This document shows, in pieces, positions 1,412 through 12,814 of a stretch of DNA of 12,814 bases. The DNA comes from an uncultured Solirubrobacterales bacterium. Its GTDB lineage: Bacteria > Actinomycetota > Thermoleophilia > Solirubrobacterales > 70-9. The notes under the pieces are model-generated. The model was not told the origin of the DNA. It ran no database searches and saw only the letters and a program-made list of their open reading frames with translations. The stretch covers positions 1 through 12,814 of the forward strand of contig CALEMO010000121.1 in NCBI GenBank assembly GCA_937910825.1. Direction: 5' to 3'. The translations under genes were made by a program, and so were the position numbers. Numbering within the stretch: the stretch's first letter is position 1; each line of letters starts with the position of its first letter.

Positions 1412-1702
1412 TTATTTGCCGGTGAAGGCCTTGGCCACCAGTTCCTGGACTCGGCCGCGGTCTTCCTTTGGCACGATCTTTTGATCCTTGGTCGGGACCA
1501 CCAGCCTCATGAATTCCCGCCGCTCATCTTCGCTCAGGTTGTTATAGAGCCTCTTGGTGTGGTGGCTGAGCCATTGGGCCCGGAGCCAGACAGCAGGCCA
1601 GTCGACCCGCTTGGCGAATTCCACGCCACGGCCGGCCAGCCCGATTGCGGCTCCCGCCCGGGAGGCCTTGGACTTGGACGCCTTTGATTTCTTCGCCGCC
1701 AT
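1412..1702 (-). CDS. small basic conserved hypothetical protein
   Basis: This 96-residue protein starts with a lysine/serine-rich tail (MAAKKSKASKSKASRAG), then an Ala/Gly stretch, a tryptophan-rich segment (residues about 43-56, VDWPAVWLRAQW) and a helical C-terminus with 'NLSEDERREFMRLV' and 'RVQELVAKAF'. I do not recognise a named domain. The 'LSEDERREF' helix resembles short helical segments seen in small actinobacterial proteins, but this gives no function. ATG 1702 is chosen because residues upstream in the same frame belong to a sigma-factor remnant. There is no Shine-Dalgarno, but a TATGCT -10-like hexamer ends 8 nt before the ATG. The open frame continues upstream into the remnant, so a longer fusion product from 1960 cannot be excluded. 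It converges with DUF4235 across 36 bp. Confidence 0.6.
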   Translation of the reverse strand: MAAKKSKASKSKASRAGAAIGLAGRGVEFAKRVDWPAVWLRAQWLSHHTKRLYNNLSEDERREFMRLVVPTKDQKIVPKEDRGRVQELVAKAFTGK

Positions 1703-2124
1703 GCTGCCAGAGCATAAGGCAGCCGGGTTTTCGATCAGGCGGGGATGGGGATCGTGATGATCGGTGCCGTTTTCACTGGCTCGGCTTTCCAGGACGCCGT
1801 CATCGTCAGAGTCGAGAGTCGGCGCCTTGCTCGCCTTGCTTCTGAGCATGTCGATCGCCCGGTTCCTGACGATGCCGAGGCACCAGGCTCCGGCGCTGCC
1901 GCGGTCGGGGTCGTAGCGCTCACCGCTTTTCCAGATTGAGAGAAATGCTTCCTGGACCACGTCTTCTGCGGCCGAGCGCTCACCGACTACGGGTAGGCGA
2001 GGGAGAAGGCCCGGCGTTCAAAGCGATCGTAGAGGGCTTCGAAAGCAATCTGATCGCCTAGCCCGACCCGGGTCGGCAGATCTTCGTCGTCGAGCTGCCT
2101 GGCTGATTGTGGAGTGGTCTGCAT
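1703..2124 (-). pseudogene. ECF-type sigma factor remnant (frameshifted, region 4 missing)
   Basis: From ATG 2124 the minus strand encodes 45 residues that look like the start of sigma region 2 (ending EALYDRFERRAFSLAYP) and then hits TAG at 1987-1989. In the next frame the domain continues without loss: VVGERSAAEDVVQEAF, then LSIWKSGERYDPDRGS and IVRNRAIDMLRSK, the region 2.2-2.4 signature. One missing base around 1987-1995 explains the change of frame. After region 2 comes a linker of about 45 residues, then the frame runs into the small basic protein at 1702. No region 4 helix-turn-helix (the LSQSEIA...GTVKSR type) appears in any frame. Promoter recognition by region 4 is therefore lost, so this is a decayed gene even if the frameshift proves to be a read error. 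It is related in region 2 to the intact sigma gene at 5452. Confidence 0.75.
1711..1716 (-). promoter_or_regulatory. possible -10 element for the small hypothetical gene (leaderless)
   Basis: On the minus strand the hexamer reads TATGCT, fits TANNNT, and ends 8 nt upstream of the ATG at 1702. Transcription would then start at or next to the start codon. There is no clear -35 and no Shine-Dalgarno. This supports an independent start for the small gene rather than translation as a fusion with the sigma remnant, but a six-base match alone is weak. Confidence 0.3.
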
Positions 2125-2158
2125 TCTTTTCGGTTCTATCTGGGCCAAGTATTGAGCA

Positions 2159-2187
2159 ATGACGCGACGACGGTGAAACCGGGTAAA
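2159..2187 (-). promoter_or_regulatory. weak ECF-like promoter candidate ahead of the sigma remnant
   Basis: On the minus strand TTTACCC (plus 2181-2187) is followed after 16 nt by CGTCAT (plus 2159-2164), about 34 nt upstream of the remnant's ATG at 2124. The spacing and the CGT core resemble ECF sigma promoters, which would fit autoregulation of the former sigma gene. The -35 lacks the usual AAC core, so confidence is low. The rest of 2125-2307 carries the 5' region of the exporter gene on the plus strand; I see no other feature there. Confidence 0.2.
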
Positions 2188-2307
2188 TCGCGCCTCACCA
2201 TTTGCTGTGTTTTCAAGCGGTGCTGCAAAGAGCTACGACAAATCGCCGCGATCGGATCAAAATGCACAGATCTGCTCAACCAGCTGTGTCGAATATAAGG
2301 TGAGACT

Positions 2308-3701: not shown

Positions 3702-3731
3702 TTCAACCAGTCGCGCCAGTCTCCACGTAGT
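3702..3731 (+). promoter_or_regulatory. ECF-like promoter candidate for the HtaA-like/fasciclin/sigK/rskA unit
   Basis: TTCAACC at 3702-3708 is followed after 17 nt by CGTAGT at 3726-3731. The AAC core with a CGT-type -10 is the general pattern of ECF sigma promoters. It predicts transcription from about 3738 and a leader of about 32 nt that contains the strong Shine-Dalgarno at 3755-3764. It resembles the candidates at 6825 and 8397, which suggests one sigma factor, plausibly the sigK product of this operon. Base matches only; not tested. Confidence 0.4.
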
Positions 3732-3754: not shown

Positions 3755-3764
3755 AAGGAGGTGA
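3755..3764 (+). promoter_or_regulatory. strong Shine-Dalgarno that decides the HtaA-like start
   Basis: AAGGAGGTGA is an almost perfect anti-16S match. It overlaps the upstream in-frame GTG at 3761, which therefore cannot be the start. It lies 5 nt before GTG 3770, which I take as the start. Confidence 0.8.
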
Positions 3765-3769
3765 CTACG

Positions 3770-4852
3770 GTGGTATCAGCCGTGGATCAGGTGGCAGGCC
3801 CGAAGTCATGGGCGCAGATGAGGCTGGGGCTCGGTCTGTTTGTAGCAATCGCAGTGACAATTACCGGCGTCACGGCCGGAAGTGCCTCGGCCAATCCGAT
3901 AGCCGGGGGCGAAACGACGCTCCGGCTGGATAAGCCGGTGGCCAAGCTTCTGAAGAAAAACGGTGTGAAGGTACAGCGCGTTAAGCCTGCGAAGGTGCGC
4001 GACGGCGCGGTCCGCTTCCCCGTAATCGGCGGCAAGCTCAATCCGACGAGCGTGGCCGGCAAAATCAAGCATTCCGGAGGCCTGAGTTTCAAGGCGGGCA
4101 AGAAGCGCCTGGTCGCGAAGAACTTCGTGATCCTGACTGGCAAGAAAAACGTGCTCCGGGCGAAGGTCGGCAAGAGCAAGGTGAATCTACTGAAGGTCGA
4201 CCTCAGCCGGGCCCAGATCAGCCGCGACGGCTTCGGAATTACCGTCATGAGGGTTGGTATTTCGCTTACCGGGACCGCCGCCAAGGCACTCAATTCAACT
4301 TTCGGGGTCAAGCTGTTCAGCAAGAACCTGAGGATCGGACACGCGGTCGTCAAGACGCAGCCGGAATCAGTTGGACTGGCAGCAGAAGGCAGCACCGATC
4401 TCGCCCTCGACCCGGATACAGCTGAGGCCCTGACAAGCCTCGGGGTTACCGCGGCACCGATTGATCCTGCGTCGGTCACGCCGGTCGGCGAGCTTTCGTT
4501 CCCGATAACAGGAGGCCGGGCGAATGCCTCGACCTTCGCCGGATCGATCAGCCACAGTGGAGGTATCTCCCTGACTGCGGGCATGACCCGCGTGGAGCTG
4601 ACCGACTTCCGGATCAACGTCGATTCCGATCCGGATCTGACTGCGAGGCTGGGTGATTCAAGGGTTTCGATCCTCTCGCTCGACCTCAGTGGTCTGAATG
4701 CCGGCGTGGACGGACTCGACATCACTCTGGGCAACGTAGTCGCATCGCTGACCGCGCAAGCGGCAGCGGCGCTCAACGAGGCATTCGGAGTGACTGCATT
4801 CACTGAAGGACTGGTTCTCGGTACGGCGACTGTCAACGCCGTAACCCGCTGA
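3770..4852 (+). CDS. secreted two-repeat HtaA-like domain protein
   Basis: This 360-residue exported protein starts at GTG 3770, set by the Shine-Dalgarno just upstream. A signal peptide follows a longer n-region: hydrophobic residues about 21-37, and a likely signal peptidase I site after SASA (about 41). The mature part is two homologous units of about 146 residues (about 49-194 and 209-355). Each has the order 'VRFPVIGGKLN/LSFPITGGRAN', 'GKIKHSGG/GSISHSGG', an 'NF/DF' strand, 'VNLLKVDLS/VSILSLDLS', and a final 'AKALNSTFGV/AAALNEAFGV'. This resembles the HtaA-domain proteins common in Solirubrobacterales; corynebacterial HtaA binds haem, but I cannot confirm haem ligands here. There is no C-terminal anchor or sorting signal. 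Repeat 1 is rich in lysine and repeat 2 has none. It is first in a tight unit with fasciclin, sigK and rskA. Secretion is well supported; the HtaA label is moderate. Confidence 0.7.
   Translation: MVSAVDQVAGPKSWAQMRLGLGLFVAIAVTITGVTAGSASANPIAGGETTLRLDKPVAKLLKKNGVKVQRVKPAKVRDGAVRFPVIGGKLNPTSVAGKIKHSGGLSFKAGKKRLVAKNFVILTGKKNVLRAKVGKSKVNLLKVDLSRAQISRDGFGITVMRVGISLTGTAAKALNSTFGVKLFSKNLRIGHAVVKTQPESVGLAAEGSTDLALDPDTAEALTSLGVTAAPIDPASVTPVGELSFPITGGRANASTFAGSISHSGGISLTAGMTRVELTDFRINVDSDPDLTARLGDSRVSILSLDLSGLNAGVDGLDITLGNVVASLTAQAAAALNEAFGVTAFTEGLVLGTATVNAVTR
3914..4351 (+). repeat. HtaA-like protein repeat 1 (lysine-rich copy)
   Basis: First of two homologous coding repeats of about 146 codons. It aligns by eye with 4394-4834 through FPxxGG, HSGG, the DLS strand and the 'LNxxFGV' end. 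By my count it has 23 lysines and only about 4 acidic residues. Confidence 0.75.
4394..4834 (+). repeat. HtaA-like protein repeat 2 (acidic copy)
   Basis: Second homologous repeat of about 147 codons. By my count it has no lysine and about 17 Asp/Glu, the opposite charge of repeat 1, with the same motif order. The nucleotide sequences have diverged, so this is an old duplication. Confidence 0.75.
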
Positions 4853-4884
4853 GCCTCTTATAAACAAAGTTGGAAAGGAATCAA

Positions 4885-5448
4885 ATGATGATCAAGAAGA
4901 AACTCCTGTTGCTGCTATGCGTGCCGGTACTGGCATTCGGAGTCGCTGCCTGCGGCAGTGACGACGATGGCTCGTCAAGCTCGGACGATACGGCGGCCGT
5001 GGAAGCGACCGGAACCACTGACAACGCTCAGGCGCAGACGGATATCGTTGCGACCGCACAGGCGACTGACGACCTCTCGACGCTGGTTGACGCGGTTGTC
5101 GCGGCCGACCTCGTCGAGACACTCCAGAGTGAGGGTCCCTACACGGTGTTCGCACCGACCAACGAGGCCTTTGCCGCGCTGCCTCCGGCAGAGCTGGAGC
5201 GCCTGCTGAAGCCCGCCAACAAGGACGAGCTGGCCAATATCCTTACCTACCATGTCGTATCGGGTGATGTGATGGCCGCCGATCTCTACGACGGACAGAT
5301 GGTTGAGACCGTCCAGGGCGGCAAGCTCAAGGTGAGCATCGATGGCGACACCGTGATGATCGGTGACGCTCAGGTGACTCAGGCAGATATCGAGACGTCG
5401 AACGGCACGGTCCACGTGATCGATTCCGTTCTTCTGCCTCAGTCCTAG
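4885..5448 (+). CDS. fasciclin-domain lipoprotein (MPT70/MPT83-like)
   Basis: This 187-residue surface lipoprotein starts at ATG 4885 behind GGAAAGGAA (4872-4880); ATG 4888 is nearly as good, and an in-frame TTG at 4870 overlaps that site. The signal peptide MMIKKKLLLLLC... ends in a lipobox VAAC with the lipidated cysteine at residue 23, followed by a disordered Ser/Asp/Thr linker to about residue 53. One complete FAS1 domain follows: TVFAPTNEAF (87-96, the H1 box), LTYHVVSG (around 120-127, the YH motif) and GTVHVIDSVLLP (174-185, the H2 box). FAS1 domains mediate adhesion at the cell surface. The closest functional analogues are mycobacterial MPT83 (lipoprotein) and MPT70, which are SigK-controlled. 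The next gene, a SigK-like sigma factor, begins 3 nt after the stop, strong evidence for co-transcription. Confidence 0.92.
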   Translation: MMIKKKLLLLLCVPVLAFGVAACGSDDDGSSSSDDTAAVEATGTTDNAQAQTDIVATAQATDDLSTLVDAVVAADLVETLQSEGPYTVFAPTNEAFAALPPAELERLLKPANKDELANILTYHVVSGDVMAADLYDGQMVETVQGGKLKVSIDGDTVMIGDAQVTQADIETSNGTVHVIDSVLLPQS

Positions 5449-5451
5449 GGA

Positions 5452-6093
5452 ATGGGGGTGGCTGCGATGAATTCTATGGTCCAGTCACCCCCAATTTTCT
5501 TCCTGCGCCCAGTCGTGATTGACTACGTCTCGACCTTGACTGACGAGACTGCCGCCAGCGACGATTCAATCCTCCTGAAGCGAATCTCTGATCAGGACCC
5601 TCAGGCGCTGCGTGAGATATACGAGCTCTATTCAGGGCCGGTATTCGGATTTCTGGTGCGGTTCCTTGCGGACCGCTCCACGGCCGAGGATGTCCAGCAG
5701 CAGGTATTCATGGAGGTCTGGCAGAAAGCGGGGCGTTTTGACCCCGAACGCGGCAGCTTCATGACCTGGGTGATGACCATCGCGCGCAGTCGCGCGATCG
5801 ACCAGGCACGAAAGAAGGTTCCCGTGCCCCACGATCCCGAGACTGCCTCGCGGCTCGCGGATTCGGCTTCGGGCGGAACTGACGAAATCTCTGAATTCAT
5901 CGGGGCGTGGCAGTTCAACCAGCTGGTCAGCGAACTTCCCTCCGAGGAGTCCGAACTGCTGCGATACCGTTTTCAGGGAGAGCTGAGTCAATCGGAAATC
6001 GCGAAGAAGACAGGCATTCCACTCGGAACAGTGAAGTCCCGCATGGTGAGCGGCCTGAGTCGCCTGCGAGAAATGATGGAGGCTGAATCGTGA
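5452..6093 (+). CDS. sigK: ECF sigma factor, SigK-like
   Basis: This protein of up to 213 residues has the two-domain ECF layout. Region 2 is at about 52-120, with ALREIYELYSGPVFGF, STAEDVQQQVFMEVWQ, FDPERGSFMTWV and ARSRAIDQAR. Region 4 is at about 158-209, with LVSELPSEESELLRY, the helix-turn-helix LSQSEIAKKTGIPLGTVKSR, and LSRLREMM. It directs RNA polymerase to a specific promoter set. The start is uncertain: ATG 5452 sits 1 nt after AGGGA, while GTG 5458 and ATG 5467 have better-spaced purine-rich sites; all are in frame. It lies 3 nt after the fasciclin stop and overlaps rskA by 4 nt (GTGA). The symbol is given because sigma type, RskA partner and fasciclin neighbour agree with SigK; orthology itself is not proven. 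It contains no cysteine, unlike M. tuberculosis SigK, which has a redox-sensitive pair. Confidence 0.88.
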   Translation: MGVAAMNSMVQSPPIFFLRPVVIDYVSTLTDETAASDDSILLKRISDQDPQALREIYELYSGPVFGFLVRFLADRSTAEDVQQQVFMEVWQKAGRFDPERGSFMTWVMTIARSRAIDQARKKVPVPHDPETASRLADSASGGTDEISEFIGAWQFNQLVSELPSEESELLRYRFQGELSQSEIAKKTGIPLGTVKSRMVSGLSRLREMMEAES

Positions 6094-6809
6094 GCGACCA
6101 GCAACGCGATCTCGCAGTGGAGTACCTGCTGGGTGAACTCGACGATTCCGAGCGGGCCGATTTCGAAGACAAGATGAAGGAAGACGCCGAGCTCTCCCGC
6201 ATCGTTGACGAGCTGAAACCGGTAGTGAGCAAGCTTGGAGCAATACCCGAAGAAGTGTGGGATCCGCCGCAGCCGCCGGCGCTCGTAATGCCTGGTGTGG
6301 CCCCGGACACATCCGTAGCCAGACCGCGTCAGAAGGAGAGTTCCAGCTTCTTCAATCTCGGCTGGATGCGTCTGGGCGCGGGACTGGCGGCAACCTGTCT
6401 TGTGATGGCGGTCGGTGTGCTCGTGGGCGTGCAGCTGGGCAGCGACGGAAGCGGGGAAACCGCTGCGCCCGTGCAGACCGTTGTGCTCGATTCGATCGAC
6501 GTCGGTCCTCCGGCGGCAAGTGGTGAGGTGCTGGTCAGCGACTCCGCAGAAGACGCGGTGACTCTCGATGTCAGTGGCCTCACACCGACGGCAGACGGCG
6601 AGTTTTACGAACTGTGGCTGCTCGGGGACGGCGGTGAGCTCGTTGCGCTCGGTTCGTTCCGGATCCCGTCTGACGGCCAGTCGAAGATCGACGTGCCGCT
6701 GCCGGTCAGCCCGGACAACTACGAATACTTCGACGTCTCGATCCAGGAAGAGAATGGTGATCCGGCACATTCCGGACGTTCGGTCCTCCGGGGCGTGACC
6801 CGGGCTTGA
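6090..6809 (+). CDS. rskA: membrane anti-sigma factor, RskA-like
   Basis: This 239-residue protein begins with GTG 6090, overlapping the sigma stop by 4 nt (GTGA), a classic coupled sigma/anti-sigma pair. The N-terminal cytoplasmic part (1-50: DLAVEYLLGELDDSERADFE...) matches the short helical anti-sigma domain of RskA and has no Cys or zinc-binding HxxxCxxC motif. A Pro-rich linker (55-80) leads to one transmembrane helix (about 91-117). The outside C-terminal domain (about 120-239), with FYELWLLGDGGELVALGSF and YFDVSIQEENGDP, is the RskA C-terminal domain (PF10099 type). It should hold the sigma factor at the membrane until regulated proteolysis releases it; in mycobacteria this uses the site-2 protease Rip1. 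No such protease is encoded in the window. The signal sensed is unknown. Confidence 0.9.
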   Translation: MSDQQRDLAVEYLLGELDDSERADFEDKMKEDAELSRIVDELKPVVSKLGAIPEEVWDPPQPPALVMPGVAPDTSVARPRQKESSSFFNLGWMRLGAGLAATCLVMAVGVLVGVQLGSDGSGETAAPVQTVVLDSIDVGPPAASGEVLVSDSAEDAVTLDVSGLTPTADGEFYELWLLGDGGELVALGSFRIPSDGQSKIDVPLPVSPDNYEYFDVSIQEENGDPAHSGRSVLRGVTRA

Positions 6810-6824
6810 CTATCGGCCGGGCGA

Positions 6825-6853
6825 TTGAACCGGCTGCGGCCTGCCTGCGTATC
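6825..6853 (+). promoter_or_regulatory. ECF-like promoter candidate, leaderless, for the patatin gene
   Basis: TTGAACC (6825-6831), a 16-nt spacer and CGTATC (6848-6853) are followed after exactly 7 nt by ATG 6861. Transcription would start at or one base from the ATG, giving a leaderless mRNA. This agrees with the lack of a Shine-Dalgarno there. The layout is the same as that ahead of the COG2907 gene at 8436. Confidence 0.45.
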
Positions 6854-6860
6854 ACCAGTA

Positions 6861-7808
6861 ATGGATAAGACTGACAAAGCCGCCGGCCCCGTTGCGCCGG
6901 ACCACCTCGTGCTCGGCAGTGGGGGAGTTCTTGGCGACATCTGGATGACCGGACTCGTGCTCGGACTCGCCCGCAGTGGGGTGGTAAACCCCGGCGCCTC
7001 GGGACAGTTCGTCGGGACATCGGCCGGTTCGATCGTCGCCACCCGTCTCGCGGTGAGTCAGGATCTCGAAGCGCTTGTCCGTCGCCACGTCGAGCGCGAG
7101 ATTGATCCCCCGCCGTCGCAGGGGCCGACCGCGTTCGAAAGGCAGTCGTCTTCGTCACAGCTCGCCGGTCGGATATTCGGAGCCCACGGTACTGGCGGGC
7201 GGCTGCTTCGCCGGGCCGGTCTGGGCCTGCTGCCGGAAGGCAAGAAAAAGCTCCGCTACCTGGAAGCGGAAATGGCTTCTCTTGCGCGGCAGTGGCCGGA
7301 CCGCCTCAACATAACGGCGGTGGACGCCCGTACCGCTCGAAGAGTCCTCTTCAACCGGAACCAGAACGACGGTTTATCGGTTAGCGAGGCGGTCCAGGCG
7401 TCCTGCGCAATTCCGGCCGTATTCAGACCGGTGGCTAGCGCAAACGGAAGCGGAAAGACCTATGTCGACGGTGGCGTCTGGAGTCCGGTCAACCTGGACG
7501 CGGTACCGGTAGAGCCGGGCCAGACGGTGCTTTGCCTGACCCCGACCGGAAGTGATCAGGGTGAAAGGAGCCTGAGGAGCAAGGCTGTTTCGGGAGTTTT
7601 CAAATCGATCGTCGCCCGCGAAGTGTCCAATTTGCGTGAGGAGGGTGCCCGGGTCATCAACGTCGTACCGGACGAATCGGCGTCTGCGGCTATCGGTCCG
7701 AGCCGGATGGCCCACGGCCGCGAAGAGCCCGTATTTGCCGCTGCCATAGGCCAGGGGCTTGCCCTGGCCTATCCTCTGCTCGACTGGCTCACAGAACCTG
7801 GCCCTTGA
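6861..7808 (+). CDS. patatin-like phospholipase family protein
   Basis: This 315-residue protein carries the full patatin catalytic set: the glycine-rich oxyanion loop GSGGVLG (19-25), the nucleophile elbow GTSAGS (52-57, Ser54), and the Asp dyad partner in YVDGGVWSPVN (Asp203). The conserved 'VSEAVQASCAIPAVFRPV' segment precedes the DGG motif. Family members are cytosolic or membrane-associated Ser-Asp acyl hydrolases acting on phospholipids or other acyl esters. There is no signal peptide. ATG 6861 is chosen over the in-frame TTG 6825 because the latter lies inside the -35 of a likely promoter and adds no conserved residues. It lies 51 bp after rskA and converges on the broken GST gene, overlapping it by 20 bp. 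Its promoter resembles that of the fatty-acid-modifying operon, so a role in membrane lipid turnover under the same sigma factor is a reasonable inference. Confidence 0.88.
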   Translation: MDKTDKAAGPVAPDHLVLGSGGVLGDIWMTGLVLGLARSGVVNPGASGQFVGTSAGSIVATRLAVSQDLEALVRRHVEREIDPPPSQGPTAFERQSSSSQLAGRIFGAHGTGGRLLRRAGLGLLPEGKKKLRYLEAEMASLARQWPDRLNITAVDARTARRVLFNRNQNDGLSVSEAVQASCAIPAVFRPVASANGSGKTYVDGGVWSPVNLDAVPVEPGQTVLCLTPTGSDQGERSLRSKAVSGVFKSIVAREVSNLREEGARVINVVPDESASAAIGPSRMAHGREEPVFAAAIGQGLALAYPLLDWLTEPGP

Positions 7809-8344
7809 GCCAGGACGGGGGGAATGCGCCGGCCGGTACGTTGCCTGGGTAATCGGGGAAGTAACGCAGCGCGAGTCGCTGGGCGGTGCTGCCTTCCAGC
7901 GCAGGCCTGAGATCACCCAGGGTCATCAGGAGCCTGGCTGATGACGCCAGTTGGAGATCCGCGGCCGTGGGCAAGTCTCGATCGATCAGGAAGGCTGCGG
8001 GCCAACTCCTGAAAAACTTCGTCGCCCCAGCGCTCTGCCGCGCTTACTTCGGCTGCGATCGCTTCCGGATACAGGGGGTTTTCCGGCACCGTCTTTTCAA
8101 GGTGTTCGAGAATGCTCACCGACCCATGAACCGGCTGGCCGTCGATCACGATTCCGGGCACCGTATGACGACCCTCTCCGTAGATTTCTTCGATCTTTTC
8201 AGCGTGTTCCCAGCCGGGATTGAAAGAAATCTCTTCGTATTCAAGTACCTTGTGCTCAAGCGCGGCCCTGACGGTCATGCAGGGATGGGAGAGCGGTACG
8301 ACATGGAGGGTCACGATTTCGGAAGCAGCCTGTTCGGGACACAT
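7789..8344 (-). pseudogene. glutathione-S-transferase-like gene with internal deletion and frameshift
   Basis: From ATG 8344 the minus strand encodes a thioredoxin-fold GST N-terminal domain: LHVVPLSHPC, the cis-proline loop TVPGIVID, VHGSVSILEHLE (the Glu/Ser glutathione-contact segment), then AERWGDEVFQELAR. After about 8000 this frame loses similarity and stops at 7913. In another frame the true C-terminal end of the same family appears: LPTAADLQLASSARLLMTL, DLRPALEGSTAQRLALRY, FPDYPGNVPAGAFPPSWL, stopping at 7789-7791. From memory of the family (about 240 residues), some 70-80 residues between AERWGDE and PTAAD are missing, so a single out-of-frame deletion near 7975-8000 explains both defects. 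A product from the first frame would lack most of the alpha-helical domain. Translation may begin at GTG 8314, as relatives start near 'xTLYxxPxSHP'. It is divergent from the COG2907 operon. Confidence 0.7.
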
Positions 8345-8396
8345 AACCAGACCCTATCCAGCTTCGACCCGAACAAGTTGAGGGTTTATTCGACGG

Positions 8397-8428
8397 TTTG
8401 CATCCGTATCGCCCCTGGCGGACGTATT
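8397..8428 (+). promoter_or_regulatory. SigK-like promoter candidate, leaderless, for the COG2907-DUF1365-ufaA1 operon
   Basis: TTTGCATCC (8397-8405), a 17-nt spacer and CGTATT (8423-8428) lie so that the -10 ends exactly 7 nt before ATG 8436. GCATCC matches 5 of 6 bases of the CCATCC -35 I recall for M. tuberculosis SigK, and CGTATT matches 4 of 6 of its CGAATA -10. It predicts a leaderless transcript; only a weak AGG precedes the ATG. Confidence 0.45.
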
Positions 8429-8435
8429 CAGGTCA

Positions 8436-9710
8436 ATGAAAGTCGCAATCATCGGTACCGGAATCTCTGGCATGGCGGCCGCTTATCACCTCCGTGATTC
8501 GGCGGATCTGACGATCTTCGAGGCGGGTCACAAGCCGGGCGGCCACGCCAATACGGTCGTGGTCGAGTCGGAGCGCGGTTTTGAAGCGGTGGACACCGGC
8601 TTCATCGTTTTCAACGACCGTAACTATCCCGAGTTCAGTCGCCTGCTCGAGGAACTTGAGGTGACCAGTCGGCCTTCGACCATGAGCTTCTCGGTCAGCG
8701 ATGGTGACTTCGAATACACGGGCCGCAACCTGAAGGGGCTTTTCGCCAGGCGCCGCAACCTGATCGACCCGCGCTTCCTCAGGATGCTGACCGAGTTCCC
8801 CAGGTTCCAGCGGCGCCTCCGGGAGATTTCCGAGAGCGGCGAAAACGGACCCTCGCTGGCTACCTTTCTCAGCGACGAAGGTTTCTCCGACCACCTGCGT
8901 GAATACGTGGTGTTGCCTCTTGTCGCTTCCGTCTGGTCGGCTGACCCGGATCAGATGTGGAGCTTTCCGGTGCGATTTCTCGCGCGTTTCCTCGACAACC
9001 ATGGCCTGCTGTCGCTCAGGGGCCGGCCACAGTGGCGAACGGTGGAGGGCGGTTCCTGGTCATACGTTGAAGCCCTGACCGCCCCGCTGCGCGACCGGAT
9101 CTGGACAGATACGCCGATCGAGCGTATTGAGAGGTTCCCCGACCGGGTCGAAGTCACCCCTCGCGGCCAGATGCCCGAAAAGTTCGATCAGGTGATCGTC
9201 GCTACCCACTCGGACCAGGCCCTGGAGATCCTCGGCGATGCGAGCAAGAAAGAGCGCCGGATCCTCGGCGCGATTGAGTACCAGCCGAACGAAGCGGTAC
9301 TCCATACCGACGAATCGCTTCTCCCCCGGCGTTCTGCCGCGGGAGCCTGCTGGAACTACCACCTGACCGCCGGGGCGACCGGCAGGGCCGCCCTTACGTA
9401 TGACATGAATCGCCTGCAGAACCTCGGGTGCGAGCGCCAGTTCTGCGTCACCTTGAACCTGACCGAGCGGATCGATCCGGACCGGATTATCGAGACTTTT
9501 CAATACGCACACCCGGTTTTTACCCCAGGCGCCATGGCCGCACAGACCCGGTGGGGTGAGATCAGCGGCACGAACAGGACACACTTCTGCGGCGCCTACT
9601 GGCGAAACGGCTTCCATGAGGATGGTGCCTTCAGCGGCCTGCGGGCGGCCCGCGATGTGCTCGCACAGGGCAGGCCAACCATTGATGCGTTGCCAGAGGC
9701 GATTCAGTGA
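8436..9710 (+). CDS. FAD-dependent amine-oxidase-like oxidoreductase (COG2907, Rv0449c family)
   Basis: This 424-residue flavoprotein opens with a Rossmann dinucleotide motif, VAIIGTGISGMAAAYHL (GxGxxG at 7-12), an acidic ribose-binding position (IFEAG) and the GGHANTV motif of amine-oxidase-like enzymes. It continues with DTGFIVFNDRNYP and VASVWSADPDQMW and ends with AYWRNGFHEDGAFSGLRAARD (387-407), the FAD-contacting C-terminal signature of COG2907. Such proteins sit next to DUF1365 and CFA-synthase-like genes in many bacteria; in M. tuberculosis the homologue Rv0449c is in the SigK regulon. It probably performs a redox step on an acyl chain, but the exact reaction is not known to me. It is the first gene of a coupled operon, with a 4-nt GTGA overlap to DUF1365. 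There is no signal peptide or membrane helix. Confidence 0.88.
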   Translation: MKVAIIGTGISGMAAAYHLRDSADLTIFEAGHKPGGHANTVVVESERGFEAVDTGFIVFNDRNYPEFSRLLEELEVTSRPSTMSFSVSDGDFEYTGRNLKGLFARRRNLIDPRFLRMLTEFPRFQRRLREISESGENGPSLATFLSDEGFSDHLREYVVLPLVASVWSADPDQMWSFPVRFLARFLDNHGLLSLRGRPQWRTVEGGSWSYVEALTAPLRDRIWTDTPIERIERFPDRVEVTPRGQMPEKFDQVIVATHSDQALEILGDASKKERRILGAIEYQPNEAVLHTDESLLPRRSAAGACWNYHLTAGATGRAALTYDMNRLQNLGCERQFCVTLNLTERIDPDRIIETFQYAHPVFTPGAMAAQTRWGEISGTNRTHFCGAYWRNGFHEDGAFSGLRAARDVLAQGRPTIDALPEAIQ

Positions 9711-10561
9711 TTCCACTTGAGTCAGCCATCTATGAAGGCACCGTCCGGCATCGCCGCTTCGAGCCGGTCGGCCGCGAATTCAACTACCGGATTTTCATGC
9801 TCTACCTGGACCTCGATGAAATCCCGACTGTCATGAAGGTCCACCCGCTTTTCTCAACCCGCCGCCGCTCGCCGGCCCGCTTCCGTCGAGCGGACTACCT
9901 TGGGCCGTCAAACCTCCCGCTGAAAACCGCGGTGCTCGACCTCGTCCAGCAGCGGACCGGAATCCGGCCAAGCGGTCCGGTGCGCATGCTCACCCACCTC
10001 AGGTACTGGGGCATGATTGAGAATCCGGTGACAATCTATTACTGCTTCGACCCATCCGGAGAAACGGTCGAGACCGTGGTGGCCGAAGTAACCAATACGC
10101 CCTGGGGCGATCGCCACGCCTATGTGATCGAGTCCGAACCCGGGACGAGCCTGGTATCGGGCAAGAAAGACAAGCAACTGCATGTCTCCCCCCTGATGCC
10201 GATGGATCATGAATACAATTTGAGCTTCGCTCGGCCAGGGAAACGCTTGCCGGTTCATATCTCCAGCGGGCAGGGCAGCAGAACGATCTTCGATGCGACG
10301 CTCAACCTGGCCAGGACAGAGATTTCTCGGCGGACTTTTTCCCGTCTCCTGGTGGCGTACCCGCCGATGTCGTTCAGGGTTGCCGCCGGCATCCACTGGC
10401 AGGCGGCGCTGACCTGGCTGCGGGGAGTCAGGTATCACCCAAGACCTGACAGCGAGACTGAATCCGGCACCTTGCGAAGCTCGCCGAAAATCGCGAATAT
10501 GTGTCCGGTGCATGGCGACGCTGCGGAAATATCATCCAGGCCGACCGAGAGCGTGATCTGA
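9707..10561 (+). CDS. DUF1365 family protein (Rv0448c family)
   Basis: This 284-residue protein starts at GTG 9707 within the TGA of the previous gene. It has the DUF1365 hallmarks: SAIYEGTVRHRRFEPV at the N-terminus, YRIFMLYLDLDEI, the arginine-rich RRRSPARFRRADYLG, RMLTHLRYWGMIENPVTIYYCFD, EVTNTPWGDRHAYV and KQLHVSPLMPMDHEYNL. The biochemical role of the family is unknown; it almost always accompanies COG2907 and CFA-synthase-like genes, so it is thought to act on or bind the same lipid substrate. The family part ends near residue 245 (RGVRYHPRP). The remaining 40 residues are a polar, probably disordered tail. Translation likely couples to the methyltransferase, whose GTG begins 2 nt after the stop. 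Confidence 0.88.
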   Translation: MIPLESAIYEGTVRHRRFEPVGREFNYRIFMLYLDLDEIPTVMKVHPLFSTRRRSPARFRRADYLGPSNLPLKTAVLDLVQQRTGIRPSGPVRMLTHLRYWGMIENPVTIYYCFDPSGETVETVVAEVTNTPWGDRHAYVIESEPGTSLVSGKKDKQLHVSPLMPMDHEYNLSFARPGKRLPVHISSGQGSRTIFDATLNLARTEISRRTFSRLLVAYPPMSFRVAAGIHWQAALTWLRGVRYHPRPDSETESGTLRSSPKIANMCPVHGDAAEISSRPTESVI

Positions 10562-10563
10562 TC

Positions 10564-11772
10564 GTGTGGCGCAAAGTCGTCCTGTCGGTAATCGGCCGCC
10601 TGCGTGACGGGAAAATCGAGATTCAGGAAGGCGATCGCATCACCGTGATCGGCGATCCCGAAAGCCACCTGGCTGCGAAGGTGACTGTGAATTCCCCGAA
10701 GATCTGGCGGCGCATGCTGCGTGGCAGTACCGGGATGGCCGAAGGGTTCATCCGCGAGGAATGGGACTGTGATGACCTGGTGGTCCTTTCGACGATTGCC
10801 GGGCTCAACCTGCCGCGCCTTGACAGGTTGCGCCGTCGTTTCAGGTTCATCACCTCACCGGTGCAGAAGGTCGGCTTGCTGATGCCGAGGACGACCAGGT
10901 CCCGCGGCAAGAAGCAGATTGCGGCGCACTACGACCTCGGCAACGATCTCTTCTCCCTCTTCCTTGACCGGTCGATGAACTACTCGGCAGCCGTCTTCAA
11001 TGACGAAAGCGACGACCTCGAGGCTGCTCAGGTCAACAAGATGGATCGCATCGCCGACCAGTTAAAACTTGAGTCGACGCACCACGTACTGGAGATCGGC
11101 ACCGGCTGGGGCGGGCTGGCGATCCACCTGGCCGAGCTCAGCGGCTGCCGGGTGACGACCACCACGATTTCCGGGGAGCAGGCCGCTCTGGCCCGAGAGC
11201 GTATCGCCCGGGCGGGCCTTGAGCAGAGGATCGAAGTTATCGAGGTCGATTACAGGGACCTAGAAGGAAAGTTCGACCGGCTGGTATCGATCGAAATGAT
11301 CGAAGCGGTCGGCTGGAAAGATTTTCCGACGTACTTTCGCCAGTGTTCGAATCTGCTCAAGAGCAACGGAGCGATGCTGCTCCAGGCGATCACCATCGAA
11401 GACTCCGCCTATGAGCTGGAAAAGGCATCCAGAAGTTTCATCAGTCGCTACATTTTTCCCGGGGGATGCCTTCCTTCGGTTGAAGAGATCGACCGTTGTA
11501 TCGCCGATGAGACCAACTTCGGCAGAGTCGACACCCTGGACATCGGCCTCGACTATGCAAGGACCCTCAGTATCTGGAGCCGCCGTTTCTCGGGGGCGAC
11601 CGGACAACTGGAGGCACTGGGCTACGACCGCCGGTTCAGGCGAATGTGGTCCCTCTATCTGGCGATCGCCGAAGGAGGTTTCCGCTCCCGCCGAAACAGC
11701 GACTTCCAGATGTTGCTGGCCAAGCCGGAATTCGCCGCGCTCAGCAACCGGCTCGACGCAGCCAGCATGTAG
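10564..11772 (+). CDS. ufaA1: UfaA1-like S-adenosylmethionine-dependent fatty acid methyltransferase (CFA synthase family)
   Basis: This 402-residue protein has an N-terminal lipid-facing domain, with GMAEGFIREEWDCDDL around residues 58-73, and a SAM methyltransferase domain: AAHYDLGNDLF (about 120-130), SAM motif I VLEIGTGWGG (175-184), SIEMIEAVGW (242-251) and RYIFPGGCLPS. The family transfers a methyl(ene) group to the double bond of phospholipid acyl chains, giving cyclopropane or 10-methyl products; M. tuberculosis UfaA1 (Rv0447c) has been linked to tuberculostearic acid. GTG 10564 is chosen because it is 2 nt after the DUF1365 stop and fits the family N-terminus; GTG 10501 would add 21 unrelated residues. 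Two departures from E. coli CFA synthase are seen: the cysteine of the YSC motif is Ala142, and the His of 'LLHT' is Gln274. UfaA1 shares the Gln as I recall it. The symbol rests on this and on gene order. Confidence 0.85.
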   Translation: MWRKVVLSVIGRLRDGKIEIQEGDRITVIGDPESHLAAKVTVNSPKIWRRMLRGSTGMAEGFIREEWDCDDLVVLSTIAGLNLPRLDRLRRRFRFITSPVQKVGLLMPRTTRSRGKKQIAAHYDLGNDLFSLFLDRSMNYSAAVFNDESDDLEAAQVNKMDRIADQLKLESTHHVLEIGTGWGGLAIHLAELSGCRVTTTTISGEQAALARERIARAGLEQRIEVIEVDYRDLEGKFDRLVSIEMIEAVGWKDFPTYFRQCSNLLKSNGAMLLQAITIEDSAYELEKASRSFISRYIFPGGCLPSVEEIDRCIADETNFGRVDTLDIGLDYARTLSIWSRRFSGATGQLEALGYDRRFRRMWSLYLAIAEGGFRSRRNSDFQMLLAKPEFAALSNRLDAASM

Positions 11773-11843: not shown

Positions 11844-12814
11844 ATGAAATCGATCGGACGCATTGTGGCGCTCGCTTTGTTCGCTGCGGCGATTCCGGCT
11901 TCGGCGTCGGCCGGTACCGCGGCAGTCGGCGTGCCGGAACGGTCTGCCGAAGCGATTATTCTAAAGGGGGCCCAGACCCAGGGACTGATCGGCGTGCCGC
12001 CGGGAGACCTCGTCGCCTTCCGTTGGCAGTCGGGGTGGCAGCAGGTCCCTGTCCAGGTCGATGAAAGAAAGCTCGTCGATTACAGGATCCTGAGGCAGTG
12101 GCGTAGTAACGGCGCCGGGGCGGAGCCATTTTTCTCGAGTGAGGTTTACGCCGATCCCGGCACCTACGCCGGAGCCGACGGCTCGCCTCAGCCGACGAGC
12201 TCAAAAGGCCCGGCCTATGGCCCCGATTTGTCCAATCCAGTCCCCCCGGGGGACAAGAACCTCGACTCGAACGACGAAATCGCCATGATGGCCTCCGATG
12301 CCGGCGCCTCGGCTTTCGGGCAGGCAAATCCCCCCGGCATTTTTGGATCGAGCCGCACCGCGATCCTCGTGGAGGACCCGCTCGATCCGGACGGTCGCCG
12401 GTTCCTTTATCTGTTCCGCCGCAGCGGCTCACTCGACCCGACTGCGGGCCGGGACTACGTCAACTACGAGCAGCGCTATTCGCCGCTGCTTGCCGGGGGC
12501 TACTTCGGCGGCTACAACCACGCAAGCATCGGAGACAACGTCAACGGGCCTCCGGTAAATCCGGAAGCGTCGACGATCAGCAGCGATCTGTACGAGCAGA
12601 CCTTCCCCGGCCGCTGGCTGATCGACGGACTGCGCATCAAGGCAGGGGCGGCAACCGGAGTGGACATCCTCGATGGTGACAAATCTACGGTCGGGCAGAC
12701 GGCCTGTGGCCGCAACGAATTGACTTTCAGCCGCGGCGGCGGCGGTGTGATCGCGGCAATCGACGGGCCGGTCAGGGCGATGATCTCACCCGGCATAAGA
12801 TCCAGCGACGCGCC
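11844..12814 (+). CDS. secreted protein of unknown function, N-terminal part
   Basis: The frame is open from ATG 11844 to the window end (323 residues, no stop). Just upstream is GGTGATC, a match to the downstream half of the Shine-Dalgarno. A Sec signal peptide is clear: MKSIGRIV, a hydrophobic core ALALFAAAIPA, and a cleavage site after ASASA (about residue 23). The mature part starts with a beta-rich region containing PERSAEAIILKG and VPVQVDERK. Later come LDSNDEIAMMASDAG, TAILVEDPLD, RFLYLFRRSG, a Gly/Tyr-rich turn (YFGGYNHAS) and IDGPVRAM. I do not recognise a named domain; similar secreted proteins occur as hypothetical proteins in soil actinobacteria. It lies 71 bp after ufaA1 on the same strand, without a convincing terminator or promoter between, so co-transcription is possible but unproven. 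Confidence 0.75.
   Translation, partial: MKSIGRIVALALFAAAIPASASAGTAAVGVPERSAEAIILKGAQTQGLIGVPPGDLVAFRWQSGWQQVPVQVDERKLVDYRILRQWRSNGAGAEPFFSSEVYADPGTYAGADGSPQPTSSKGPAYGPDLSNPVPPGDKNLDSNDEIAMMASDAGASAFGQANPPGIFGSSRTAILVEDPLDPDGRRFLYLFRRSGSLDPTAGRDYVNYEQRYSPLLAGGYFGGYNHASIGDNVNGPPVNPEASTISSDLYEQTFPGRWLIDGLRIKAGAATGVDILDGDKSTVGQTACGRNELTFSRGGGGVIAAIDGPVRAMISPGIRSSDA

What the first reader, a model, noticed from the sequence alone, without database searches (positions are those of the whole stretch)
4885..11772. A compact, complete-looking SigK regulon outside mycobacteria
Seen: a fasciclin lipoprotein, a SigK-like sigma, an RskA-like anti-sigma, and a COG2907-DUF1365-UfaA1 operon all lie within 7 kb. 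Known: in M. tuberculosis the SigK regulon is made of the fasciclin proteins MPT70/MPT83 at one locus and Rv0449c (COG2907), Rv0448c (DUF1365), Rv0447c (UfaA1), Rv0446c (DUF1295), sigK and rskA at another. Inference: this window may show the ancestral single-locus form, linking surface adhesion proteins with acyl-chain modification under one membrane-gated sigma factor, here with an HtaA-like protein and a patatin lipase as new members.
Basis: partly seen in the sequence, partly recalled or inferred. Interest (0 to 1): 0.75.

Follow-up and report, generated by a model that had tools for sequence, protein, structure and literature searches.

The report
Fasciclin and furan-lipid sigma-factor regulon
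An uncultured actinobacterium carries, in one 8-kb block, a membrane-gated transcription switch together with surface proteins and the likely genes for an unusual protective membrane lipid; relatives of the tuberculosis bacterium and light-exposed proteobacteria have much the same set under other switches, which hints that all of them answer light-type oxidative damage.

Summary
In detail: HtaA-fold protein, fasciclin lipoprotein, ECF sigma, RskA-type anti-sigma, patatin, then a COG2907-DUF1365-CMAS operon. The sigma is not a SigK: it forms its own clade (100/99), scores 122.9 against the SigK model's cut-off of 226, and has no cysteines. But the cluster looks like one regulon. A motif, CAACC-N16/17-CGTA or close to it, lies upstream of the sigma operon head in 29 of 34 orthologous loci (resampled mean 0.23), 29 of 34 have fasciclin or HtaA adjacent, and the window has such sites before HtaA, patatin and COG2907. 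SigK-linked loci show C(C/A)ATCC...CGAAT instead where a site was found (4 of 10). The trio matches UfaD-UfaO-UfaM, which makes furan fatty acids and belongs, with a fasciclin, to the singlet-oxygen regulon of Rhodobacter. UfaD trees put the trios of SigK loci in another clade; a second lineage of the window's order also joined the trio to this sigma. Best reading: a lineage-specific, probably photo-oxidative stress regulon, convergent with SigK and RpoE-ChrR regulons. The signal is inferred, not shown.

The parts
3703..3729 (+). ECF-type promoter site TCAACC-N17-CGTA before the HtaA gene
   Evidence: related motif before the sigma operon head in 29 of 34 orthologous loci
3761..4852 (+). secreted protein of two tandem HtaA-fold domains, without any Tyr or Cys
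4870..5448 (+). fasciclin (FAS1) lipoprotein; lipobox VAAC read from the sequence
   Evidence: PF02469 147.4 bits
5467..6093 (+). ECF sigma factor of a clade found so far in Solirubrobacterales (ORF open from 5452)
6090..6809 (+). membrane anti-sigma factor, RskA_C domain outside, N-terminal part without a zinc motif
   Evidence: PF10099 54.9 bits; alignment
6826..6851 (+). promoter site TGAACC-N16-CGTA, 9 nt before ATG 6861
6861..7808 (+). patatin-like lipase, GTSAG and DGG motifs read from the sequence
   Evidence: PF01734 57.4 bits
7913..8344 (-). GST_N/glutaredoxin-like protein; follows the trio in several relatives, here lies before it; not counted as a regulon member
8400..8426 (+). promoter site GCATCC-N17-CGTA, 9 nt before ATG 8436 (perhaps leaderless)
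   Evidence: GCATCC also in G001 and G007, GCAACC in G005
8436..9710 (+). UfaD-like FAD oxidoreductase (COG2907)
9707..10561 (+). UfaO-like protein (DUF1365)
   Evidence: PF07103 246.5 bits
10501..11772 (+). UfaM-like SAM methylase (CMAS family); the true start may lie after 10561
   Evidence: PF02353 266.4 bits; 270.2 against a cut-off of 400 for the cyclopropane synthase model PRK11705

Best explanation
A compact, autoregulated stress regulon of Solirubrobacterales. An RskA-type membrane anti-sigma holds a lineage-specific ECF sigma. On a signal outside the membrane, probably photo-oxidative (singlet-oxygen) damage, the sigma is released and transcribes from CAACC/GCATCC-N16/17-CGTA promoters its own operon (HtaA-fold protein, fasciclin lipoprotein, sigma, anti-sigma), the patatin, and the UfaD-UfaO-UfaM operon, which converts unsaturated phospholipid chains to furan fatty acids that scavenge singlet oxygen. 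Fasciclin and HtaA-fold proteins would act at the cell surface, and patatin would remove damaged acyl chains. Shown by computation: gene content, recurrence, shared promoter motif, a sigma and a UfaD outside the SigK-linked clades. Inferred: sigma-promoter pairing, furan product, signal, roles of the surface proteins and patatin.
For: Motif before the sigma operon head in 29 of 34 orthologous loci (300 first-order Markov resamplings of the same zones: mean 0.23, most 3); 45 hits in 13,589 bp of promoter zones against 36 in 471,059 bp elsewhere in the same loci; in 14 of 21 loci with divergent fasciclin/HtaA the motif also faces that gene. In the window three such sites stand before three gene starts of the block. 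Within the genus the trio's -35 box follows the sigma: GCATCC or GCAACC in the four genomes with the sigma linked and an own trio site, TGATCC in the three (G011-G013) without it. The three families stand in the order ufaD-ufaO-ufaM of R. palustris, by its locus numbers (passages of PMC7380195). Fasciclin RSP_1409 and RSP_1090/1091 are in the R. sphaeroides RpoE regulon (table in PMC7074977); Qingshengfaniella has TGATCC...CGTA before rpoE, UfaD and fasciclin; Mesorhizobium terrae has RpoE-ChrR, FAD oxidoreductase-DUF1365-CFA, fasciclin, MsrPQ and photolyase genes in one locus.
Against: A scan of the window's genome for CAACCG-N15/18-CGTA gave 8 hits against 11 for the reversed control, and none of the 8 lies in the window, so the motif alone picks out no wider regulon and the window's own sites are variants of the consensus. 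In G009 the trio has no own site, and in G006 it is unlinked and without the motif. Patatin is absent from the clusters of G001 and G007. No rhodopsin was found in the window's genome, 81% complete. No transcript, lipid or binding data exist here. 30 of the 34 orthologous loci lack the trio within the stretch held, some of them short contigs. The sister group of the sigma is unresolved.
Confidence: 0.6

Rival explanations
1. It is a true SigK regulon in ancestral single-locus form.
For: SigK is the best NCBIfam hit (122.9 bits); the RskA_C anti-sigma is present; SigK-type sigmas of unnamed f32 and f27 genomes stand near the trio (7 loci), three f27 genomes also have a fasciclin there, and Tsukamurella has trio plus sigK-rskA; a joint clade is not rejected (p-AU 0.09).
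Against: Own clade outside SigK; score far below the cut-off; no cysteines; promoters CGTA not CGAAT; UfaD of SigK-linked loci in another clade; the best solved-structure hit is Rhodobacter RpoE (99.1 bits) and not SigK (78.2).
Confidence: 0.12
2. Two independent units that merely lie side by side: an HtaA-fasciclin-sigma-RskA operon with its own regulon, and a furan-lipid operon that happens to be next to it.
For: Trio and sigma are unlinked in G006; the trio loci of other genera of the order that were fetched (L083-L096) show no such sigma nearby, and 30 of 34 sigma loci show no trio.
Against: Trio joined to the sigma in two lineages whose UfaD are not sisters (window genus and L258); the trio promoter carries one -35 type where the sigma is linked and another where it is absent; in L258 the UfaD frame overlaps the end of the anti-sigma gene.
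Confidence: 0.2
3. A haem/iron or general envelope-stress regulon; the lipid trio makes cyclopropane or 10-methyl fatty acids rather than furans.
For: HtaA fold and a siderophore-interacting protein at 204-1043; the third gene is of the CMAS family; UfaA1 was reported to make 10-methylstearate in vitro (cited in PMC5660069, passages).
Against: The HtaA protein has no Tyr or Cys, so the known haem-ligand type is missing (ligand recalled); 10-methylstearate was made in E. coli by a FAD oxidoreductase and a methyltransferase, BfaA and BfaB, alone; the methylase scores 270.2 against 400 for the Cfa model; families and order are those of the furan pathway.
Confidence: 0.08

Closest known systems
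SigK-RskA regulon of Mycobacterium tuberculosis and relatives
   Same: ECF sigma plus RskA_C membrane anti-sigma; fasciclin proteins and a COG2907-DUF1365-methylase trio as neighbours or targets
   Different: different sigma clade, no cysteines, CGTA instead of CGAAT -10 box, UfaD in another clade, HtaA-fold protein and patatin added, one locus instead of the two of M. tuberculosis (the latter recalled)
RpoE-ChrR (ECF11) singlet-oxygen regulon of Rhodobacter and other Proteobacteria
   Same: ufaD, ufaO, ufaM-type and fasciclin genes in one regulon; CGTA -10 box; in Mesorhizobium and, without ufaM in the stretch seen, Qingshengfaniella in one locus
   Different: anti-sigma is ChrR (zinc, cupin-like domain) there and RskA type here; -35 box TGATCC there; sigma clades distinct
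Furan fatty acid pathway UfaM-UfaD-UfaO of R. sphaeroides and R. palustris
   Same: three families and gene order
   Different: product not shown here; regulation by another sigma
HtaA/ChtA haem-binding domains of Corynebacterium
   Different: two tandem domains without any Tyr; haem binding doubtful

Membership tests
SigK (NCBIfam NF007228; ECF18/ECF19) | score above the curated cut-off of the SigK model | tested here: not met
   122.9 bits against 226
SigK (NCBIfam NF007228; ECF18/ECF19) | falls in the SigK clade of a sigma tree | tested here: not met
   own clade 100/99, SigK clade 100/96 apart; a union is not rejected, p-AU 0.09
SigK (NCBIfam NF007228; ECF18/ECF19) | two redox cysteines (133 and 183 in M. 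tuberculosis) | tested here: not met
   no Cys in 213 residues; the feature as described in PMC7509140 (Introduction section and passages). Present in 94% of ECF18 and 56% of ECF19 by that paper, so absence is not exclusion
SigK (NCBIfam NF007228; ECF18/ECF19) | adjacent RskA-type membrane anti-sigma | tested here: met
   PF10099 54.9 bits against 29.4
SigK (NCBIfam NF007228; ECF18/ECF19) | promoters of the C(C/A)ATCC...CGAAT type | tested here: not met
   window sites end in CGTA; SigK-type sites were seen in 4 of 10 SigK-linked loci scanned (L145, L148, L162, L167), near variants in three more (L146, L147, L154), none in L149, L150, L163
ECF11 RpoE-ChrR | ChrR anti-sigma with zinc-binding anti-sigma domain and cupin-like domain | tested here: not met
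   the anti-sigma is RskA_C with a membrane segment and no Cys/His zinc motif in its N-terminus
ECF11 RpoE-ChrR | falls in the ECF11 clade | tested here: not met
   6 ECF11 rows form 99/97 without it; a union is not rejected, p-AU 0.29
ECF11 RpoE-ChrR | TGATCC-N16-CGTA promoters | tested here: inconclusive
   -10 box the same, -35 box TCAACC/TGAACC/GCATCC
UfaD-UfaO-UfaM furan fatty acid pathway | FAD oxidoreductase, DUF1365 protein and SAM methylase of the right families in one operon | tested here: met
   order as RPA2571-2570-2569 by number
UfaD-UfaO-UfaM furan fatty acid pathway | makes methylated furan fatty acids | not testable with these tools
   needs lipid analysis; the R. sphaeroides and R. 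palustris proteins themselves were not compared
HtaA | HtaA fold | tested here: met
HtaA | haem-ligating tyrosine (recalled) | tested here: not met
   0 Tyr in 363 residues

The most novel reading that the evidence does not exclude
Fasciclin plus UfaD-UfaO-UfaM is a portable photo-oxidative protection module that at least three ECF sigma lineages (this one, SigK, RpoE-ChrR) have taken under control separately. If so, the unknown signal of SigK, and the role of its fasciclin antigens, would be singlet-oxygen-type membrane oxidation, and the SigK locus would make furan fatty acids.
Probability: 0.4. Interest if true: 0.85.

Novelty: new variant of a known kind. Interest (0 to 1): 0.62.

Why it matters
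The signal that switches on SigK is still unknown according to PMC7509140 (passages), and the function of its fasciclin antigens is unclear (recalled). Finding the same gene set under another sigma in Solirubrobacterales, and in the singlet-oxygen regulon of Rhodobacter, gives a concrete and testable guess for signal and product. It also suggests regulon convergence: sigma and promoter differ while the target set stays. On print: a search for at least three of fasciclin, furan fatty acid, DUF1365, SigK, MPT83 and singlet oxygen found 4 papers; the only one of them that holds fasciclin, furan fatty acid and SigK together is PMC7074977, whose passages remark that R. capsulatus RpoE-ChrR resembles SigK-RskA more than R. 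sphaeroides RpoE-ChrR but, in what I saw, draw no link from SigK to furan lipids or fasciclins. The library is open-access only, other wordings (such as furan-containing) would be missed, and Veyrier 2008 and Dufour 2008 are not held.

Tried and rejected
SigK identity: rejected as above. ECF11 membership: rejected on anti-sigma type and clade. A genome-wide regulon by motif scan: one search gave no enrichment (8 hits, reversed control 11). The version with a start codon 5-12 nt behind gave 7 hits in the window's genome, 2 of them in the window (binomial p 0.001); of the other five I checked two, and neither precedes an ORF longer than 10 codons. Over 18 genomes the ATCCG pattern had 69 hits against 6 for the reversed control and the AACCG pattern 53 against 21; I do not use these ratios, because the reversed pattern differs in dinucleotide and codon make-up, and genomes without the sigma have hits just as those with it do.

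A first sigma tree (63 rows) held mis-framed rows; it was replaced (8 rows removed: duplicates, mis-framed or unrelated ECFs; 55 left; 3 more removed: L023 and L032, mis-framed, and Thermus; 52 left). Deep order among the window clade, SigK, ECF11 and Sig2 stays unresolved: none of the four unions tested was rejected (p-AU 0.093, 0.221, 0.294, 0.246).

The promoter expression is that (set on genus and order loci) with G or A required after the -35 box; it was fixed after the hits had been seen. 25 of the 34 loci were not among those on which the motif was first noticed, and 22 of these 25 have it, but several are near-copies (L256/L257, L267-L269, L260/L263/L272). The five misses among the 34 are L239 (contig edge), L245, L251, L259 and L266. 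Rhodopsin as a sign of light exposure: 4 of 8 genus genomes with the sigma against 0 of 10 without (p 0.023, not corrected for kinship; none in the window's genome); a hint only. phmmer of the HtaA protein and of the anti-sigma against solved structures found nothing.
Full report
WHAT IS THERE. The window is a whole contig (C121) of a 1.8-Mb, 81% complete metagenome-assembled genome. The best named homologues of the sigma and DUF1365 proteins are from MAGs called Solirubrobacterales, Thermoleophilia or Actinomycetota (120 of 1435 and 120 of 7483 hits are listed, most without an organism name). Gene calls and Pfam give, left to right: siderophore-interacting protein (-), DUF4235, a broken sigma remnant (-), MFS transporter, then the block in question: HtaA-like protein, fasciclin lipoprotein, ECF sigma, RskA_C anti-sigma, patatin, a GST/glutaredoxin-like gene (-), and COG2907, DUF1365 and CMAS genes with overlapping ends.

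RECURRENCE. Of 61 genomes searched (own included), close orthologues of the sigma (45-59% identity) occur in 7 other genomes of the genus and 4 beyond it. In the genus, fasciclin-sigma-anti-sigma stands in 8 of 18 genomes. The trio follows in the window, G001, G007 and G009 directly, and in G005 across a contig break (one contig ends inside patatin, another begins with a patatin end followed by COG2907). G006 has the trio on another contig; G008 and G017 have no DUF1365 match. G011, G012 and G013 show no close orthologue of the sigma but have the trio beside the same MFS gene and beside a second ECF sigma, Sig2, whose anti-sigma has zf-HC2 plus RskA_C.

NAMED SURVEY. A scan of one genome per species with an alignment of 10 sigma orthologues confirmed 77 loci. 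The 34 with at least 42% identity (L239-L272) carry Solirubrobacterales, Thermoleophilia or broader Actinomycetota/Actinomycetes names, among them Solirubrobacter soli, S. phytolaccae, S. taibaiensis, Conexibacter and Svornostia, except two that look mislabelled (Chlamydiae, Bifidobacterium). In 29 of the 34 a fasciclin or HtaA-like gene adjoins the sigma, either upstream on the same strand (8 loci) or divergent (10 fasciclin, 11 HtaA); 4 of 34 hold the trio in the stretch held. One of these, L258, is not of the window's genus: fasciclin diverges from sigma-anti-sigma-UfaD-UfaO-UfaM, and its UfaD groups with family f3 genomes (98/95), not with the window's genus (100/100). So the trio was joined to this sigma at least twice, or was once joined and mostly lost.

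PROMOTERS. Upstream sequences showed GCATCC-N17-CGTA 9 nt before the ATG of COG2907 in the window, G001 and G007, although the gene before it differs. A regular expression set on genus and order loci found TCAACC-N17-CGTA before HtaA and TGAACC-N16-CGTA before patatin in the window, and CAACC-type sites before operon heads of relatives. On the 34 loci a form with one more letter fixed occurs upstream of the sigma operon head in 29, against a mean of 0.23 (most 3) in 300 first-order Markov resamplings. Zones of 13,589 bp hold 45 hits on both strands; the remaining 471,059 bp hold 36. In 14 of 21 loci with a divergent fasciclin or HtaA gene a site faces that gene as well. This is what an autoregulated sigma with fasciclin/HtaA as core targets would leave. 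In genus members G011-G013 without this sigma the trio has TGATCC-N16/17-CGTA (3 of 3); with the sigma linked and an own trio site it has GCATCC (G000, G001, G007) or GCAACC (G005); G009 has no own site and G006, unlinked, has none. UfaD trees pair G001 (with sigma) with G013 (without; 100, 100/100), and G007 with G011 and G012 (96, 94/78), so the -35 change happened more than once or was undone. Against this, the simple motif is not enriched over the whole genome.

NOT SIGK. The SigK model scores 122.9 against a cut-off of 226; the best solved structure is Rhodobacter RpoE, 99.1 bits, then SigK, 78.2. In a tree of 52 sigmas the 11 orthologues form one clade (100/99), SigK 100/96, ECF11 99/97 and Sig2 99/99; no union of the window clade with any of them is rejected or shown. 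The sigma has no cysteine, so the cysteine switch described for M. tuberculosis SigK (PMC7509140, Introduction section) is absent. Of 35 phylum loci fetched around DUF1365 (L132-L166), 9 hold a SigK-type sigma, 7 of these with all three trio genes and 3 with a fasciclin; Tsukamurella has the trio with sigK-rskA. Sites there are of the type C(C/A)ATCC...CCGAAT, seen in 4 of 10 SigK-linked loci scanned (L145, L148, L162, L167). The 8 UfaD rows from SigK-linked loci lie in a 14-row clade (SH-aLRT 100, quick tree), apart from the clade of 22 rows of the window's order that holds the window (95; two rows of the order, L080 and L089, fall elsewhere). Group labels differ between papers: PMC7509140 puts M. 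tuberculosis SigK in ECF18 (passages), while PMC7406223 labels its anti-sigma AS19-1 (passages).

WHAT THE TRIO DOES. Passages of PMC7380195 report that UfaM methylates, UfaD desaturates and UfaO (a DUF1365 protein) is needed for the oxygen step that gives a methylated furan fatty acid, and that RPA2569-2571 suffice. The window has the same families in the order UfaD-UfaO-UfaM. By PMC7074977 (table and passages) the RpoE regulon of R. sphaeroides holds RSP_1090/1091, cfaS and the fasciclin RSP_1409 (log2 change under photo-oxidative stress 2.8 at 7 min, 4.5 at 45 min). PMC10949492 (passages) cites a fasciclin of Azospirillum under RpoE-ChrR. PMC4067076 (passages) lists CFA1, CFA2, FAS2 (fasciclin-like) and a DUF1365 gene among SAK1-dependent singlet-oxygen genes of Chlamydomonas. 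PMC9861118 (passages) reports light induction of the fasciclin genes mpk83 and mpk70 of M. kansasii, which have putative SigK sites. Plasmid records show RpoE-ChrR with FAD oxidoreductase-DUF1365-CFA, fasciclin, MsrPQ and photolyase genes together in Mesorhizobium terrae, and DUF1365, FAD oxidoreductase, RpoE-ChrR and fasciclin in Qingshengfaniella, where rpoE, UfaD and fasciclin each have TGATCC...CGTA. Other records looked at had RpoE-ChrR-type genes near DUF1365 without a fasciclin in the stretch (Shinella, Pseudoalteromonas, two Azospirillum, Aminobacter), the trio with a MerR regulator and no ECF (Salinivibrio), or the trio with neither ECF nor fasciclin (Rhodococcus). The consensus TGATCC-N16-CGTA is from PMC5507510 (passages); Shewanella sites are in PMC4336711 (passages).

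VERDICT. One regulon: likely (about 0.8). Furan fatty acids as product: likely. Photo-oxidative signal: a guess from shared gene content (about 0.55). SigK orthology: unlikely. The gene set itself is known from RpoE-ChrR; new here are a further, lineage-specific sigma with its own promoter motif that seems to govern it, and the reading that SigK and RpoE-ChrR regulons share one functional core.

Noticed in passing
window 1412-2260 (-): Remnant of a second ECF sigma (Sig2 of relatives): frame break near 1990, sigma region 4, its zf-HC2/RskA_C anti-sigma and a GreA-like gene missing, rest fused to a small conserved ORF; its TGATCC-N16-CGTA promoter (2234-2259, -) is still there. Could be real decay or an assembly error.
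   Followed up: partly
window 11844-12812 (+): Open frame running off the contig, probably secreted by its start; no Pfam family.
   Followed up: partly
L258 and L272: Contigs titled Chlamydiae and Bifidobacterium carry Solirubrobacterales-type loci; probably mis-binned.
   Followed up: partly
L275-L280: ECF sigma with a fasciclin gene about 1 kb downstream in Bacteroidota and sphingomonads: the fasciclin-ECF link is wider still. Pantoea and Agrobacterium plasmids also have ECF, anti-sigma and fasciclin together.
   Followed up: no
L077:7190-9037 and similar ORFs in L035, L078, L079: About 620-residue conserved ORF between the MFS gene and the trio (or HtaA); the copy scanned has no Pfam family.
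   Followed up: no
L080 (G015): A genus member whose UfaD (49% of columns filled) falls in the clade of SigK-linked and other proteins, away from its order: possible transfer or contamination.
   Followed up: no
L035, L036, L046, L077-L079: Sig2 loci: ferritin-like (Ferritin_2) genes upstream of Sig2 and a GreA-like gene downstream (families checked for some copies), with TGATCC...CGTA sites.
   Followed up: partly
L146 (G224): A fasciclin near a SigK-linked trio has a GCAACC...CGTA-type site instead of CGAAT.
   Followed up: no
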